Positions 56,814 to 62,883 of a stretch of 64,000 bases of DNA are shown here, piece after piece (within the stretch, counting starts at the first letter, position 1; every line of letters starts with the position of its first letter). A program made the position numbers and the translations under genes. The stretch spans positions 1,597,142 through 1,661,141 of the forward strand of contig NZ_VLLL01000005.1 in assembly GCF_007994225.1 (NCBI RefSeq), written 5' to 3'. This DNA comes from Stackebrandtia albiflava (GTDB lineage: Bacteria; Actinomycetota; Actinomycetes; Mycobacteriales; Micromonosporaceae). The notes beneath the pieces are model-generated. The model made no database searches, was not told the DNA's origin, and saw only the letters and a list, made by a program, of their open reading frames with translations.

Positions 56814-57272
56814 TCACCCGGATTGTTCGGCGTCGCACAGTTCGTCGACCTGTGCCGTGCCCGCCTCGTCGAAGAACACCGCGACGCCGAGCTCACGGCA
56901 GGCGGGTAGATCGGTCTCGGTGAACCGCACCGCCCATTCCCGTCCGGGGCCGAAGCTGAGTTCGGGCGCGGCGAGCCGCGGCCCGGCGGCCGCACCCGCC
57001 GCCTCCGGCAGGCCGAACCTGGCCGGATCGGTGGCCACCGCCCGTCTGGTGGCGGCGTCGGCCGTCGCGAGGTGCTCCGGCAGGCGGGCGACGACCTCCG
57101 CGATGAACGCGGTGTCGACGTCGTCGGTCGAGTCGGGTTCCTCCAGCAGCAGACTCAGGACGATCCGTCCGTACGGTGGCTCCCCGGGAAGTGACGCACT
57201 CCAGCAGCGGACTCCCGGTGGTGCCGGCGCGGAACTCAACAACGCGACACCCGGAATCCGGAGCGATGACAT
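56814..57272 (-). CDS. Hypothetical protein
   Basis: 152-aa soluble acidic protein of no family I recognise. RLAAPELSFGPGREWAVRFTE and ACRELGVAVFFDEAG near the C-terminus look like a compact conserved domain. TACAAT (57279-57284) lies exactly 6 nt before ATG 57272, giving good leaderless support and ruling out the longer frame start at 57359. Converges with the threonine dehydratase gene. Confidence 0.75.
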   Translation of the reverse strand: MSSLRIPGVALLSSAPAPPGVRCWSASLPGEPPYGRIVLSLLLEEPDSTDDVDTAFIAEVVARLPEHLATADAATRRAVATDPARFGLPEAAGAAAGPRLAAPELSFGPGREWAVRFTETDLPACRELGVAVFFDEAGTAQVDELCDAEQSG

Positions 57273-57511
57273 TGCGAGATTGTATCGCCGCCGGCGACGG
57301 GGACGGTGTGAGCAGCCCGAACGTCCACGGGCGGCACTGCGCGAGTGTCGATGCCCCACCGGTCACGGTGGAGGCCGCCGGGATGGTCTGGGCACCACCA
57401 TCCGGAGGCGTCGACCGCTCCGCCGGGGGCGGGCACCGACCGTGGCGCCGGCGGTGCTTGCGAACTCCTCACCCGATCCAGTGACACGTCGACCGTGCGC
57501 GCCGACGTCGT

Positions 57512-57584: not shown

Positions 57585-59285
57585 TCACCAACGGAAGCCG
57601 AACTCGTCGGCCTGCGGCTTGGGGCGGATGACCCCCGGGGTTGTCTTGGCGGTGTTCCAGGGGCCGCTCGGCAGCGCCTGGTCTCCGTCGGGTTTGTCGG
57701 CGCGGTGGGCGAGACGATCGATGTTCGCCGCCTCGTCGACGTCCTGCGACTCCGGCGCGGACAGGTCGGGAACCGCGGCGGCGGCGTGTTCCCGGTCGTC
57801 CCAGCCGGGACCGCCCGAGATGACCGCCGGCACGGTGTCGCCCTCGGCACGCCACACGTAGTCGCCGCCCTCGGGGACGTACCGTCCCTCCTGCTCCTTC
57901 TCGTCACGGCGTTTCGGCGCCGCCGGGGCGGCGGGCCCACCGAACGCCTGCCGCACTCCGGACACGACCGAACGGTTCAGCCGGTCGCCGCCGGAGTGGA
58001 GCTTGGAGCTGCGCATCCCGGGCCTGCGGGGCCTGCCTCCGACCACTCCGTTGCGCCCGATCAACGGCCGTGTGGAGCCGCTCCCGCTGCGGGGCGTGCC
58101 GTTGGCGCCGGCGCCGGGCGGCATACCGGGTCGGAGGCCCGTCGTGCCCGGGCCACCCGTCGCCGGCATTCCGGGACGCCAGCCTGGGCCGCCGGGGGCC
58201 GTCCCCGGACGCCAGCCGGGGCCCGTACCGGTGCCGGGCGGCCGGTTGCCGATCACGGGGCGAGTGACGCCCGTCCCGTTGTACCGGGACGGGTTGGTGG
58301 GGGCCATGCCGGTGGTGCCCGGCCGGGAACCGATTACCGGCCGCACCGTCGTCTGCGGCGGTCGCGGCGTCACGGGGCCGGTACCCGGCGGCTTCAGGCC
58401 GGGTGTCGGTTTGGGGAGCTGCGGGGTGGGCAGTCCGGTGCGCGGCGGCGGGACCGGCTTCGTGCCGGGCGGCACGTGGGGCGGCGGAGCGGGGGGCTTG
58501 AGTCCTCCCCACGGCGGGGGTGTCCCCGGCGGGATCGGCGGGATGCCCGGCGGTGGCGGCGTCGGGCCGGGCATCCCGGGTGACGGCAGGGGGCCCGGTG
58601 TCGTCGGGGGAGGCTGCGGCAACGGCGTCAACGGCGGTCCCTGCAGGTCCGGTCCGTCGGGTGAGAACCCGCCGTCCGTACCGGGAGAGAACGCACCGGA
58701 AGGCGGTGCCGCCCCGTTGGGATCGGTGACGGAACCGGTGGGGCCGGTGCCGGTGGGGCCGCCCGTCCCGGTCCGGTCGTCGCCGGGAAGGTCGACCGGC
58801 GGCATCGGGCGGTAGTCCGTGGGCGACTCCAGGAGGAGCCCCTGCGCGCCCACCGCCTGGGTGGTGGTCCACAGTGCGTCGGCGGCGATGTCGTAGGACC
58901 AGCGCTTCTGCTCCCACTCGTCCTTCGGGGTGCTCGCCTTCACCGCCTCCCACTGGCTCATCAACTCGGCGGCCTCGATCTTCGCCGAGTCCAACCCGTC
59001 GGCGACCTGTTGCCACAGCACGCTGTTGCCCTGCGCGGTCTCGGCGACGGTGCGCAGTTGCAGCGCCTGCGACTCCAGTTGAGACAGGTACGCCTCACTG
59101 CCGTCGCTGGTCCACGCACCGCGGGCGTCGGCCATCCGGGATTCGAGGACCCCGGCCTGTGTCGCCAACGCCGTCGCCACCTCGGCCCATCTCGCGGCCT
59201 CCTCGGCCAGGGTCTCGGGCCGGTCCTGGCTGAGCGCGGCGTGCAGCTGTCCCAGGGGACCGTCTTCGGGTTTCGACGTGGTCAT
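57585..59285 (-). CDS. PPE/WXG100-like Pro-rich ESX substrate
   Basis: 566-aa protein. Residues about 1-150 are helical and look like a WXG100/PPE-type domain (WTSDGSEAYLSQLESQALQL is the WXG turn). Residues about 160-460 are Pro/Gly-rich, with RP(V/L)IG(S/N/R) occurring three times. The C-terminus (about 480-566) is acidic and folded-looking, ending ADEFGFRW. No signal peptide, so export would be by a type VII system. AGGAGG lies before ATG 59285. Forms an operon with the WXG100-like gene 11 nt upstream. Confidence 0.85.
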   Translation of the reverse strand: MTTSKPEDGPLGQLHAALSQDRPETLAEEAARWAEVATALATQAGVLESRMADARGAWTSDGSEAYLSQLESQALQLRTVAETAQGNSVLWQQVADGLDSAKIEAAELMSQWEAVKASTPKDEWEQKRWSYDIAADALWTTTQAVGAQGLLLESPTDYRPMPPVDLPGDDRTGTGGPTGTGPTGSVTDPNGAAPPSGAFSPGTDGGFSPDGPDLQGPPLTPLPQPPPTTPGPLPSPGMPGPTPPPPGIPPIPPGTPPPWGGLKPPAPPPHVPPGTKPVPPPRTGLPTPQLPKPTPGLKPPGTGPVTPRPPQTTVRPVIGSRPGTTGMAPTNPSRYNGTGVTRPVIGNRPPGTGTGPGWRPGTAPGGPGWRPGMPATGGPGTTGLRPGMPPGAGANGTPRSGSGSTRPLIGRNGVVGGRPRRPGMRSSKLHSGGDRLNRSVVSGVRQAFGGPAAPAAPKRRDEKEQEGRYVPEGGDYVWRAEGDTVPAVISGGPGWDDREHAAAAVPDLSAPESQDVDEAANIDRLAHRADKPDGDQALPSGPWNTAKTTPGVIRPKPQADEFGFRW

Positions 59286-59296
59286 GGGGAGCCCTC

Positions 59297-59689
59297 CTAG
59301 TCGAGGTGTGCCTCGGTCGACGGCGACGGAAGGTTCGCCGCCTTCCGGATCTGGTGGATGTCGGCCCCGTTGACGGCGTCCATGTCGCCGAAGGTGTTCT
59401 TGATCGCCAAGGTCGTGCGCGACATGTTCTCGAAGTCGCGGGTGACGGTCTCCAGTAGATCGTCGGCCGATCGCATCGTGGTACGCAGTCGGGTGACGAC
59501 GTCTCCGAGCCCGAGGAACTCCGCCGACTTCCAGCCCGCTCCCGGGCTTCCGGTCAACGCCTGCCGGGTGGGCGCCACCCAGTCGCCGAAGTCGGCCGAG
59601 TCGCGGCTGAGCTTTCGGGCGACGTCCGACAGGTCGTCGGGTCGCAGCGAGAACTCCTTCTCGACACGGTCGGGAACCGGCTGATTCAT
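59297..59689 (-). CDS. WXG100-like ESX protein
   Basis: 130-aa helical protein, with a probable turn GAGWKSAEFLGL (about 50-61) between two helices, typical of type VII secretion partners. A GTG frame start at 59695 exists, but AGGAG lies 5 nt before ATG 59689, which is chosen. No secretion ATPase or membrane genes are visible in the window. Upstream gene of the Pro-rich partner; promoter in the SARP-repeat region. Confidence 0.8.
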   Translation of the reverse strand: MNQPVPDRVEKEFSLRPDDLSDVARKLSRDSADFGDWVAPTRQALTGSPGAGWKSAEFLGLGDVVTRLRTTMRSADDLLETVTRDFENMSRTTLAIKNTFGDMDAVNGADIHQIRKAANLPSPSTEAHLD

Positions 59690-59736
59690 GTTCACTCCTG
59701 GTCGACTCTCGTCGCGGCGTCGGCCGCGCGTGATCG

Positions 59737-59789
59737 CTTGTCACAAGTCTGGTCAAGCCCGGCTAGGTCGCGGCTAGGTCGGAGTTTGG
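59737..59789. promoter_or_regulatory. SARP-type heptamer repeats and palindrome
   Basis: GGCTAGG occurs at 59761-59767 and 59772-59778, exactly 11 bp apart, with a degenerate third unit (59783-59789, AGTTTGG) in phase. SARP proteins bind such heptamers at 11-bp phase. A perfect palindrome CTTGTCACAAG (59737-59747) lies nearer the WXG100-like gene. TTGACC (minus strand, 59756-59751) could be that gene's -35. Confidence 0.6.
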
Positions 59790-59856
59790 CGGCCGGAGCC
59801 TGCTGGAACACTTGCCGCAGAGCCGAAGCCGACACGCCATTCCAGGAGCCGAAGCG

Positions 59857-62800
59857 ATGCAGTTCGGAATACTCGGGCCGTTGGAGATCCGCACCGAGAC
59901 CGGCACCGTCGACGTGGCCGCCGCCAAGCAGCGTTCCCTGCTGGCGGTGTTGATCAGCCGGGCCGGGGACCCGATCACCGCGGACGGACTGATCGAACGG
60001 GTGTGGCACGGTGACGCGCCCAAGGCGGCGAGGAAGGCGTTGGCGTGGCACATCCTGCAGTTGCGGAACCTGCTGGGCGATCGGGATCTGATCCGGTTCG
60101 CCGGGGGCGGGTACCGGCTCACCGCCGCTCCGGGACGGCTCGACCACGTGCGGTTCGCGACGTTGTCGGCGGAGGCGGAGTCGCTGACGGAGACGCACCC
60201 GGAGCAGGCGCTGTCCAGACTGGACGAGGCGCTCGCGTTGTGGCGTGGTGAACCGTACTCCGACATCGTGGAGGGTTCGCCACGGGAACACGCCGCGCGA
60301 CTGCTGGAACAGCGTCTCCACGTGGTGGAGAGGCAGGCGGCCCTGCGGCTGCGGCTCGGCCGTCACGCGGAGCTGGTGCCCCGGTTGACCGGTTGGCTGG
60401 CCGAGTACCCGTTCCAGGAGTCACTGCGTGGGCACCTGATGCTCGCGCTGTACCGGTCGGGCCGGCAGGCCGACGCCCTGGAGGTGTACCGGGAGGGCCG
60501 CCGCCGTTCGACGACGGAACTCGGGCTGGAACCCGGTGCGGCGCTTCGGGAGTTGGAGCGCCGCATCCTGGGCGCCGACCCCCTGCTGGATCCACCGGAG
60601 CGGACCGAACCGGTGGCGGCCGCCCCGCCCCGTCCCGCCCAGCTCCCCTCCGACACCGGCGCGTTCACCGGGAGGGACGCGGAACTGGCCGTGATCGCGG
60701 AGGCGTTCGGGCGCCCCCGGCCGGGCGGGACCGTCGTCGTCGCGGTGGACGGCATGGCCGGTGCGGGGAAGACCACCGTGGCGTTGAAGGCGGCCCACGG
60801 GCTGGCCGACCGTTTCGGCGACGGGCAGTTGTTCATCGACCTGCACGGCTTCTCCCCCACCTCCCGCCCCGTGTCACCGGAACAGGCCCTGGAACGCCTG
60901 TTGCGGAGCCTGGGCGTGTCCTCGGCCGCGATGCCCGCGGATGTCGACGACAAGGCGGCACTGTGGCGCAGCACCCTGGGCGACCGGCGGATCCTGGTGT
61001 TGCTCGACAACGCGGTGGACGAACGGCAGGTCCGTCCCCTGTTGCCCGGCAGTCCCGCACAGGGCGTCTTGATCACGAGCCGGCGCCGGCTCGCCGGCCT
61101 GGACGACGCCCGTCTACTGTCGATCGGGGCGCTTCCCGAACCGGAGGCGTCCCGGATGTTCGTGGCCTGCGCGGGACTACATGGGGAATCCGTCGACCCG
61201 GATGCCGTCCGCGCCGTCGTGACGGTGTGCGGCGGCCTGCCGTTGGCGTTGCGGATAGCCGCCGCCCGGGTCCGCCGCAACCCCCACCGGGACGTCGGAG
61301 TCCTGGTGGAACGGTTGTCGAGGAGACACGACGCCCTCGCCGAACTGGACCTGGGTGACCGCAGCGTCTCGGCCGCGTTCCAGGTCTCCTACGACGAACT
61401 CCCCGAGACGGCGCGACGGGTGTTGCGGTTGACGGCGTTGCTGCCGGGCGCGGGCTTCGGCACCGAGGTGGTGGCGGCCTTGGCGGACCTCTCGGTCGAC
61501 GAGGCGGCACGTTCCCTCGACACCCTGACCGACGTCCACCTGCTCGAACAACGCGACGACGGAAGATACGGGCGACACGACCTGATCGGGCGGTTCGCCC
61601 GCCTACTGCTGGACCGCCTGGAGTCGCCGGAGGCCCGGGAGGCGGCGCTCGGCAGAGCGATCGGTCACCACCTCTTCCACGCTCACGAGGCGGTGACCAT
61701 GATCTACGGGCAACCGCCGCACCTGCCCGAGCCACCCCGGATCGACCCGAGGTGGCGACGCGACTTCCCCGACACCGACGCCGCGATCCGCTGGTGCGAG
61801 CGGGAGGAGGCCGACGTCCTGGCGTTGCTGGAGGGCCTCGCCGACTCCGGGCGGGCACGCGACGCCTGGCCGCTGGCGGCCTGCTTCGCCGGGTACATGT
61901 TCCTGTACGAGTACCGGCGCGTCCTGCACGACCTGGCGTCGCGGCTCACGGAGTCACTGCGGGGCGACGAAGGCGCCGACTTCGGATTCGCGTCCATGGC
62001 ACGCATCACCGGTATCTGCAAGGTGTTGCGCGGCGACCGGCGCGAGGCGGCCGACCTCTTCGAGGCGGCACTTCGCCGGTGGCGGCACCTGGGTGACCCG
62101 GTCGGCGAGGCGTCGGTGTTGGGGAACCTGGGAGTCCTGTGCCATGAACTGGGCGAATTCGACCGGGCGGTGCGGCTGCAACGCGAGACGATCGACCTGG
62201 CGCGACGCCTCGACCAGCCCAAGACGCTCGCCTCCGCCCACTCGCATCTGGGGAAGGCGCTGTGGCTGCTGGGTGACCTGACCGAGGCCGTACGGCAGCT
62301 CCGCATCGCCCACGACGTCTTCACCGGCCTGGGGGTGCGGATCGGTGCCCTGGCCGCGTTGAACGACATGGGCGCGGTGTACCTGGCCGCCGGTGACCCC
62401 GATGAGGCCGCCGGGTGTCACCGCGCCGCGATGCGCCTGGCGGAGCAGGACGACGAGGTCACCGGCAGGGTCACCGCCCACCTGGGGCTCGGCCGGGTCC
62501 ATCGCGCGACCGGACGCCACACCGAGGCCGTCGTCCACCACCGTCGCGCCGCCGAACTGTCCGCGGTGGGCGGTGGCGCCATGCACATCGGCTCACTGGT
62601 CGAACTCGGTGTGACCGAACGGGAGGCGGGCGACATGTCCGGGTCACTGCGGCGGCTGACCGAGGCCATCGCCCTGGCCGAACCGGCCGGCGACCACGCC
62701 TCCCTCGCCAAGGCGCTGCGGGCGCTGGGCCACTGGCACCTCGCACACGGAGACCCGGACTCCGCGGTGGTGACACTGGAGCGCGCCGCGTCGCTACGGG

Positions 62801-62883
62801 AGGCGCTGCCGCCGAAGGACGCCGCCGCGATCCCCGCGGAGCTGGCGGACGCCCGCCGCGCTCAGTCCGAGGGCAACCGGTAG
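59857..62883 (+). CDS. AfsR/SARP family regulator with NB-ARC and TPR domains
   Basis: 1008-aa regulator. OmpR-like wHTH (about 1-95: [29 protein letters not shown]), bacterial transcriptional activator domain (about 96-245), NB-ARC ATPase (about 270-560, Walker [11 protein letters not shown] about 298-307, RILVLLDNA), and TPR repeats (about 720-1000). The AGGAG Shine-Dalgarno selects ATG 59857. It faces the ESX-like operon across the 11-bp-phased heptamers, so it likely controls that operon or itself. Signal enters through the ATPase/TPR part. Confidence 0.95.

What the first reader, a model, noticed from the sequence alone, without database searches (positions are those of the whole stretch)
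59689..59857. 11-bp-phased SARP heptamers face an ESX-like gene pair
GGCTAGG repeats at exactly 11-bp phase, with a third degenerate unit, between a SARP activator and a divergent WXG100/Pro-rich pair. SARPs normally control antibiotic clusters; here no biosynthetic gene is visible and the neighbour is a putative secreted pair. It could be a SARP-controlled type VII secretion substrate.
Basis: partly seen in the sequence, partly recalled or inferred. Interest (0 to 1): 0.55.

Follow-up and report, generated by a model that had tools for sequence, protein, structure and literature searches.

The report
SARP switch facing ESX-like genes
Between an AfsR-type regulator gene and a pair of genes resembling type VII secretion substrates lies a real, conserved regulator-binding site whose layout suggests that it switches on the gene pair, a target not usually linked with this class of antibiotic regulators.

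Summary
Two exact 11-bp units (CGGCTAGGTCG, 59760-59781) lie between an AfsR-type large SARP (59857-62883 +) and a divergent ESX-like/Pro-rich pair (59297-59689, 57585-59285, -). The claimed third unit is not supported. In the window's genome CTAGGN6CTAGG occurs three times: here and in front of two operons that begin with YbaB-like genes, one of them again divergent from a SARP. YbaB-like genes follow the ESX-like pair in G004, so this looks like a small regulon. A paralogous SARP/ESX cassette in G004 has a different repeat, still at 11 bp. Read towards the ESX-like gene, the repeats end 8 nt before a -10-like hexamer (CAGACT), the published SARP geometry; the opposite direction lacks one. 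Best reading: the SARP activates the pair. Binding, activation and export are untested. The pair fails the curated WXG100/PPE cut-offs and lacks YxxxD/E, so 'type VII substrate' remains a guess. SARP operators are known; a SARP with ESX-like targets did not come up in my literature searches.

The parts
59760..59770 (-). 11-bp direct repeat, copy nearer the ESX-like gene (CGACCTAGCCG read towards it)
   Evidence: exact repeat at offset 11; same core CTAGG at 11 bp in G004 ortholog
59771..59781 (-). 11-bp direct repeat, copy nearer the SARP gene
59746..59751 (-). -10-like hexamer CAGACT, 8 nt from the nearer repeat, reading towards the ESX-like gene
   Evidence: spacing rule from PMC10936776 (passages); functional role inferred
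59695..59699 (-). ribosome-binding-site-like AGGAG, 5 nt before the ATG of the ESX-like gene
   Evidence: sequence; inferred
59297..59689 (-). ESX-like (WXG100-like) 130-aa protein
   Evidence: family A3: 20 places in 6 of 101 genomes, this one included; TIGR03930 reports the window member at E 0.17 (below the cut-off) and one of its four aligned relatives at E 1.9e-4
57585..59285 (-). 566-aa protein: PPE/EspB-like helical N-terminus, Pro-rich middle, conserved C-terminus
   Evidence: directly after the ESX-like gene in all 20 places; PPE profile in 4 of 5 aligned members, not the window member; N-terminal model pLDDT 85, best PDB match PPE4
59857..62883 (+). large SARP of AfsR type: ODB (Trans_reg_C), BTAD, NB-ARC, TPR; 1008 aa

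Best explanation
The repeats are a SARP operator. Two protomers of a SARP, most likely the AfsR-type protein encoded next door, bind the two 11-bp units side by side and recruit RNA polymerase to a promoter (-10-like CAGACT at 59746-59751) that reads towards the ESX-like/Pro-rich pair, so the pair is switched on when the NB-ARC/TPR part of the regulator is triggered by an unknown signal. The same SARP probably acts in trans on two further operons that begin with YbaB-like genes and carry the same operator, one of which lies beside a second SARP gene. Shown: the repeats, their phase, their conservation in one orthologous locus, the shared operator at three sites, the -10-like spacing. Inferred: binding, identity of the binding SARP, direction of activation, signal. 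Guessed: export of the pair by a type VII system.
For: (1) Orthologous locus in G004: SARP (34% identity over 991 columns), ESX-like (36% in A1), Pro-rich protein (42% over 279 columns), same divergent order, with three 11-bp units. (2) CTAGG pairs at gaps 1-30: offset 11 in 3 of 9 hits (own) and 4 of 20 (G004), 0 of 20 in the three other congeners held, which lack the operator. (3) The 3 own sites lie in front of the pair or of YbaB-led operons. (4) In 79 BTAD upstream regions an exact run of 8 or more at offset 11 occurs in 8, at any other offset 8-30 in at most 3. (5) NANNNT hexamer 7-12 nt beyond the repeats, CCTAG direction: the three own sites and G004 L127, L129 by script, the G004 ortholog 8 nt after its third unit; reverse direction 1 of 6; background 0.147. 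(6) Full-length relative of AfsR, E 2e-105 over residues 2-942.
Against: Of AfsR's two base-reading residues neither is kept (T88 is W64, R92 is Q68), and of the six DNA-contact residues the paper calls highly conserved three are kept (W74, P79, R94) and three not (Q48, T88, K95) (mapping mine); a different repeat could explain part of this. SARPs with the same W/Q pair (L161, L088) have no repeat upstream and L164 with W/Q has another repeat. Of six SARPs in G000 and G004 divergent from ESX/YbaB-type genes, L212 has no repeat. Of 20 ESX/Pro pairs, three have a run of 8 or more at offset 11 upstream. In G004 two further CTAGG operators lie before a small secreted-looking protein and an unrelated gene. 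The best SARP match in G004 is not the one at the orthologous locus but one 13 kb away. The spacing test was set after the first cases were seen.
Confidence: 0.7

Rival explanations
1. The operator is bound mainly by the second SARP (L010/L109 locus, C2:547 kb) or by both, and the window's SARP has another target.
For: That SARP gene carries the same CTAGG operator in its own divergent promoter; SARPs often sit beside their targets (recalled).
Against: Its recognition helix is quite different from that of the window SARP, whereas the G004 SARP that sits beside the same operator has the window-type helix (RKALxWHxLxLR).
Confidence: 0.15
2. The repeat is an autoregulatory site of the SARP gene only; the divergent pair is not controlled by it.
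For: The site is about 75 bp from the SARP start; SARPs in these genomes with 11-bp repeats upstream include some without a recognised ESX-like neighbour.
Against: The same operator stands at C1:1787 kb with no SARP hit in the 9 kb examined and none of the 33 BTAD genes of the genome within 80 kb; the -10-like hexamer at the right distance is on the ESX side and not on the SARP side.
Confidence: 0.1
3. Chance repeat without function.
For: The heptamer alone is common; short tandem repeats occur (10 of 1000 shuffles have a run of 10 at some offset 8-30).
Against: 0 of 3000 shuffles for this offset, phase kept in the orthologous locus, genome-wide offset-11 excess.
Confidence: 0.04

Closest known systems
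AfsR / afsS promoter (afs box), Streptomyces coelicolor
   Same: Large SARP with ODB-BTA-NOD-TPR; operator of two 11-bp direct repeats a fixed short distance upstream of the -10 (PMC10936776, passages and section 7; PDB 8k60, 8jke, 8hvr).
   Different: Not an AfsR equivalog (NF053617 494.7 bits, cut-off 1430); base-reading residues and repeat sequence differ; neighbour is an ESX-like pair, not afsS or an antibiotic cluster.
EmbR (Mycobacterium tuberculosis), a SARP-fold regulator outside antibiotic synthesis (role recalled)
   Same: ODB-BTA part related (2fez, E 2.6e-28).
   Different: EmbR has an FHA domain (PMC10936776 section 7) instead of NB-ARC/TPR; its target genes are others (recalled).
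PE/PPE, EspB and WXG100 pairs of type VII secretion
   Same: Two adjacent genes: a short protein predicted helical (low confidence), then a longer one whose predicted N-terminal helices best match PPE4, with other PPE, EsxA and EspB chains in the list.
   Different: Window proteins miss the curated cut-offs, WxG in the helical part and YxxxD/E; no full-length EccC gene in the window.

Membership tests
SARP (large, AfsR type) | OmpR-type DNA-binding domain followed by BTAD | tested here: met
   Trans_reg_C 33.7 bits (cut-off 26.2) and BTAD 134.2 (22.1)
SARP (large, AfsR type) | C-terminal NB-ARC/NOD and TPR | tested here: met
   NB-ARC 36.0 bits (23.5), TPR_12 123 (30.1); AfsR over residues 2-942
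SARP (large, AfsR type) | Conserved DNA-contact residues (Q48, W74, P79, T88, R94, K95 of AfsR) | tested here: inconclusive
   3 of 6 kept (W74, P79, R94), mapping mine
SARP (large, AfsR type) | Operator of direct repeats at 11 or 22 bp | tested here: met
   exact run of 11 at offset 11, 59760-59781; rule from PMC10936776
SARP (large, AfsR type) | 3' repeat about 8 bp from the -10 | tested here: met
   8 nt to CAGACT on the ESX side; the -10 itself is a prediction
SARP (large, AfsR type) | DNA binding and activation | not testable with these tools
   needs EMSA and transcription assays
AfsR equivalog | NF053617 curated cut-off | tested here: not met
   494.7 of 1430 bits
WXG100 (PF06013/TIGR03930) | Profile cut-off | tested here: not met
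   window 12.1 of 44.85 bits; 2 of 5 family members reported at E up to 1, window 0.17 and one relative 1.9e-4
WXG100 (PF06013/TIGR03930) | WxG at the turn of a helical hairpin | tested here: not met
   no WxG in protein 1; a W (WKS) lies between the two predicted helices, model pLDDT only 59.8
PPE (PF00823) | Profile cut-off and PPE helical fold | tested here: inconclusive
   4 of 5 aligned members at E to 4e-4, window member none; best Foldseek match PPE4, E 8e-3, Z 10.7 with an F-BAR domain tied
Mycobacterial-type T7SS substrate | YxxxD/E after the helical hairpin | tested here: not met
   none in either window protein
Mycobacterial-type T7SS substrate | A T7SS in the genome | tested here: met
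   five EccC_a matches over the cut-off, none in the window; other components not searched
Mycobacterial-type T7SS substrate | Export by that system | not testable with these tools
   needs secretome of wild type and eccC deletion

The most novel reading that the evidence does not exclude
A branch of AfsR-type STAND regulators in Stackebrandtia-like actinobacteria is dedicated to orphan type VII cargo: each SARP, triggered through its TPR sensor, turns on an ESX-like/PPE-like pair together with YbaB-like partners, and the operator sequence diverges from cassette to cassette while the 11-bp phase stays, so that many cargo sets are kept on separate switches.
Probability: 0.3. Interest if true: 0.7.

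Novelty: new variant of a known kind. Interest (0 to 1): 0.5.

Why it matters
SARPs are studied as switches of antibiotic clusters; a SARP with a conserved operator in front of ESX-like genes would widen their role and give a handle on when orphan ESX/PPE-like pairs outside mycobacteria are made. The operator rule (11-bp phase, about 8 nt to the -10) also offers a way to read regulons of the dozens of BTAD regulators in such genomes (33 and 46 in the two genomes counted) from sequence.

Tried and rejected
Third degenerate unit in the window: rejected (4-5 of 11 matches; 23 of 157 positions in the region match at 5 or more).

CTAGG operator as a family-wide feature: rejected. CTAGGTNNNRNCTAGGT exact occurs in 7 of 101 genomes, own and G004 included. 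For the six hits in the five other genomes (L042-L045, L047, L048) I recognised no SARP or ESX-like gene by eye in the ORF lists; for L043 (G008) the script printed the wrong stretch, as the match lies at 1109 of that locus, so only its ORF list was seen.

ESX identity of the genes behind the YbaB-like genes in L009 and L010: by eye they look helical and ESX-like, but Pfam, NCBIfam and profile comparison give no support (best are EspB_PE E 0.018 and WXG100 E 0.57). I therefore call these loci YbaB-led operons.

11-bp repeats upstream of all ESX/Pro pairs: not so; 3 of 20 by runs of 8 or more. The G002 locus L252 has CAAGGT three times at 11 and 10 bp between a SARP and a YbaB-led operon (read from the sequence); not counted.

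A first binomial for the phase test used 24 loci; on recount it is 23, tail 8.5e-5.

Named relatives in genome contigs: the SARP and the Pro-rich alignment A4 each gave no confirmed locus. Structure of protein 1: low confidence, no fold search made with it. A family absent from the fold lists is not excluded.

Papers (only listings were seen for these): 'Streptomyces antibiotic regulatory protein' + WXG100: 0; SARP + type VII secretion: 5, unrelated by title; four of five T7SS/regulation/BTAD terms: 9; AfsR + ESAT-6: 2; three of EsxA, S. coelicolor, regulat, WXG-100: 36, 10 shown.

Full report
WHAT IS THERE. The intergenic region 59690-59856 separates an AfsR-type regulator gene on the + strand (59857-62883, 1008 aa; BTAD, Trans_reg_C, NB-ARC, TPR) from two genes on the - strand, a 130-aa ESX-like protein (59297-59689) and a 566-aa protein with a helical N-terminus and a Pro-rich body (57585-59285). 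It holds CGGCTAGGTCG twice, 59760-59770 and 59771-59781, with no gap, so the period is 11 bp. Dinucleotide shuffles reach a run of 10 at offset 11 in 0 of 3000, and at any offset 8-30 in 10 of 1000. A second repeat, GAGCCGAAGC at 26 bp, overlaps the ribosome-binding region of the SARP gene.

ORTHOLOGOUS LOCUS. G004, whose single contig of 6,841,557 bp equals the published length of the Stackebrandtia nassauensis type strain (PMC3035245, passages), has the same arrangement (L080): SARP (34% identity over 991 columns), ESX-like protein (36% in the pairwise alignment), Pro-rich protein (42% over 279 columns), then two YbaB-like genes (PF02575 E 1e-10 and 3e-8) and a WXG100-like gene (E 4e-4, below the cut-off). 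Its intergenic region holds three units, CTAGGCGGCGT CTAGGTTTCGT CTAGGT. So the core CTAGG and the phase are kept while much of the rest has changed. A caution: the best SARP match in G004 by score is a neighbour 13 kb away, so the regulators may not be strict orthologs.

A SMALL REGULON. CTAGGTNNNRNCTAGGT occurs three times without mismatch in the 5.55-Mb genome of the window; with up to two mismatches there are 44 places. The other two exact sites are C1:1787 kb, about 40 bp before a YbaB-like gene (PF02575 E 8e-5, below cut-off; L009), and C2:547 kb, between a second SARP gene and an operon that begins with two YbaB-like genes (E 1e-6, over the cut-off, and 4e-4; L010). Genes behind them look ESX-like by eye only; profile tests gave nothing. 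The one place with a single mismatch (L015) lies between a kinase-like gene and an unknown gene. That YbaB-like genes belong with the ESX/Pro pair rests: of 20 ESX/Pro pairs in 6 genomes, 6 have a SARP gene in the 8.5-14 kb fetched (window, L080, L120, L239, L240, L252), and 5 of these 6 (not the window) have a YbaB-like gene on the same strand in the same gene row; of the other 14, none has one on the same strand and two (L121, L247) have one on the opposite strand. Fisher p is 4e-4, or 0.007 if those two count. The profile used included the YbaB-like genes of L080, L252, L010, L013 (= L009) and L212, so among the five only L239, L240 and L120 are independent hits.

PHASE TEST. For CTAGG pairs with gaps of 1-30, offset 11 accounts for 3 of 9 hits in the window's genome and 4 of 20 in G004, against 0 of 9, 0 of 2 and 0 of 9 in three other congeners. 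Two of the four in G004 are at one locus. Collapsing overlapping and palindromic hits by hand gives 6 of 23 loci, binomial tail 8.5e-5 for a chance of 1/30. The two other G004 loci precede a small protein with a signal-like N-terminus (L127) and, read in the activating direction, a gene of unknown function (L129). They speak against an ESX-only regulon in that species.

SARP PROMOTERS IN GENERAL. In 79 BTAD genes (33 of the window's genome; 46 of G004, two listed pieces counted as one gene) I asked for exact direct repeats within 250 bp upstream; for L203, L218 and L219 the gene start was a guess and for L162, L164 and L167 it was set by hand. Runs of 8 or more occur at offset 11 in 8 regions and at every other offset from 8 to 30 in at most 3; with runs of 7 or more it is 12 against at most 7. 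In the first 57 regions the count was 7 with 0.4 expected from mononucleotide shuffles. The eight are L086, L091 (window), L100, L164, L170, L175, L178 (G004 ortholog), L182. By inspection of the nearest ORFs six of the 79 SARPs are divergent from an ESX- or YbaB-type gene: L091, L109, L164, L175, L178, L212. The L175 neighbour hits TIGR03930 at E 0.007 and another ESX-like ORF lies further along (E 6e-4, L125); the first neighbour of L212 is YbaB-like at E 0.0013. Four of these six have a run of 8 or more, L109 has the 6-bp CTAGGT pair by which I had found it, L212 has nothing; of the other 73, four have one (L086, L100, L170, L182); Fisher p for 4 of 6 against 4 of 73 is 6e-4. L164 is a paralogous SARP/ESX/Pro cassette whose repeat is ACCAAATC at 11 bp: another sequence, same phase. 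L100 and L170 face a Cys-ending short peptide that looks like a RiPP precursor and share CTAACCG at 11 bp, closer to the usual kind of SARP target.

DIRECTION. Published SARP promoters have direct repeats at 11 or 22 bp with the 3' repeat 8 bp from the -10 (PMC10936776, passages). Read towards the ESX-like gene, the second 11-bp unit is followed by 8 nt and CAGACT (59746-59751); read towards the SARP gene no hexamer with A2 and T6 follows within the range. In the CCTAG direction the script also finds one for L009 (GATGCT, 10 nt), L109 (TACCGT, 12), L127 (GAGACT, 9) and L129 (TAGCGT, 8); for the G004 ortholog it finds none from the second unit, but GACACT lies 8 nt after the third unit. In the reverse direction one of six has it (L109, GAACGT). 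Of the two ESX cassettes with other repeats, L164 has one on the ESX side only (GAGCAT, 9 nt) and L175 has one on both sides (CATCAT, 9 nt; GAGGTT, 8 nt). The chance of such a hexamer at 7-12 nt is 0.147 in these upstream regions. The test is partly post hoc, since I saw the first cases before fixing the range.

THE REGULATOR. It is related to AfsR over nearly its full length (8k60, E 2e-105) but is not an AfsR equivalog (494.7 of 1430 bits). Of the AfsR residues that read bases (T88, R92; PMC10936776 section 7) neither is kept (W64, Q68; alignment, numbering mine); of the six contact residues the paper calls highly conserved, W74, P79 and R94 are kept (W50, P55, R70) and Q48, T88 and K95 are not (K24, W64, N71). 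The G004 SARP has the same recognition-helix pattern (RKALxWHxLxLR), the second SARP of the window's genome has not.

THE PAIR. The ESX-like family (A3) was found at 20 places in 6 of 101 genomes, four of them of the window's genus and two of other genera of the family, and each is followed directly by a Pro protein. One relative hits WXG100 at E 1.9e-4, and 4 of 5 aligned Pro proteins hit PPE, best E 4e-4; the window members reach no cut-off. The N-terminal 169 residues of the Pro protein are predicted as four helices (pLDDT 85); Foldseek lists 0 chains at E 0.001 or better, and the best are PPE4 (E 8e-3) and PPE15, with EsxA and EspB further down; long helical bundles such as BAR domains score as high by VIA-align. 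No YxxxD/E, and no WxG in the helical parts. The genome has five EccC_a matches over the cut-off, none in the window, so a secretion machine probably exists, but nothing shows that this pair uses it.

MOST LIKELY WORKING. The SARP, when released by a signal acting on its NB-ARC/TPR part, binds the two units and activates the pair, and probably the two YbaB-led operons. Confidence 0.7 for the operator acting on the pair, lower for the rest.

KNOWN OR NEW. The mechanism is the known SARP mechanism. A SARP with ESX-like targets did not come up in the searches, which cover only open-licence PubMed Central papers and of which I saw the listings. I therefore rate it a new variant of a known kind with interest 0.5.

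Noticed in passing
L100 (own genome, C1:1550 kb) and L170 (G004:C1:3688 kb): AfsR-type SARPs divergent from a short peptide ending in Cys-Cys-Cys (RiPP-precursor-like), with CTAACCG twice at 11 bp in both species: a second conserved SARP operator.
   Followed up: partly
window 59820-59829 and 59846-59855: GAGCCGAAGC repeated at 26 bp just before the SARP start codon, overlapping its ribosome-binding region.
   Followed up: no
L105 (own genome, C1:978 kb): SARP with a repeat at 10 bp instead of 11 (AATCTGTCAG/AATCTGTCAA), divergent from a Cys-rich short peptide.
   Followed up: no
L009 6-4070 and 5040-6139: The CTAGG operator at C1:1787 kb lies about 60 bp behind an NRPS-like gene; the third gene of the operon seems to change frame and shows an HExxH-like motif in the second frame.
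   Followed up: no
L239 (G003:C1:432-446 kb): YbaB-like, ESX-like, Pro and SARP genes all on one strand, the SARP directly behind the Pro gene: the cassette as a possible single operon, without 11-bp repeats upstream of the ESX-like gene.
   Followed up: partly
L252 4108-4237 (G002:C18): CAAGGT three times at 11 and 10 bp between a SARP and a divergent YbaB-led operon with an ESX/Pro pair.
   Followed up: partly
window 56814-57290 (-): 158-aa protein behind the pair on the same strand, no Pfam match at E 0.1 or NCBIfam match at E 0.5; could belong to the same transcript.
   Followed up: no
G004:C1 (L127, L129): Two further CTAGG operators in S. nassauensis, before a small protein with a signal-like N-terminus and before a gene of unknown function whose -10-like hexamer would give a leaderless transcript.
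   Followed up: partly
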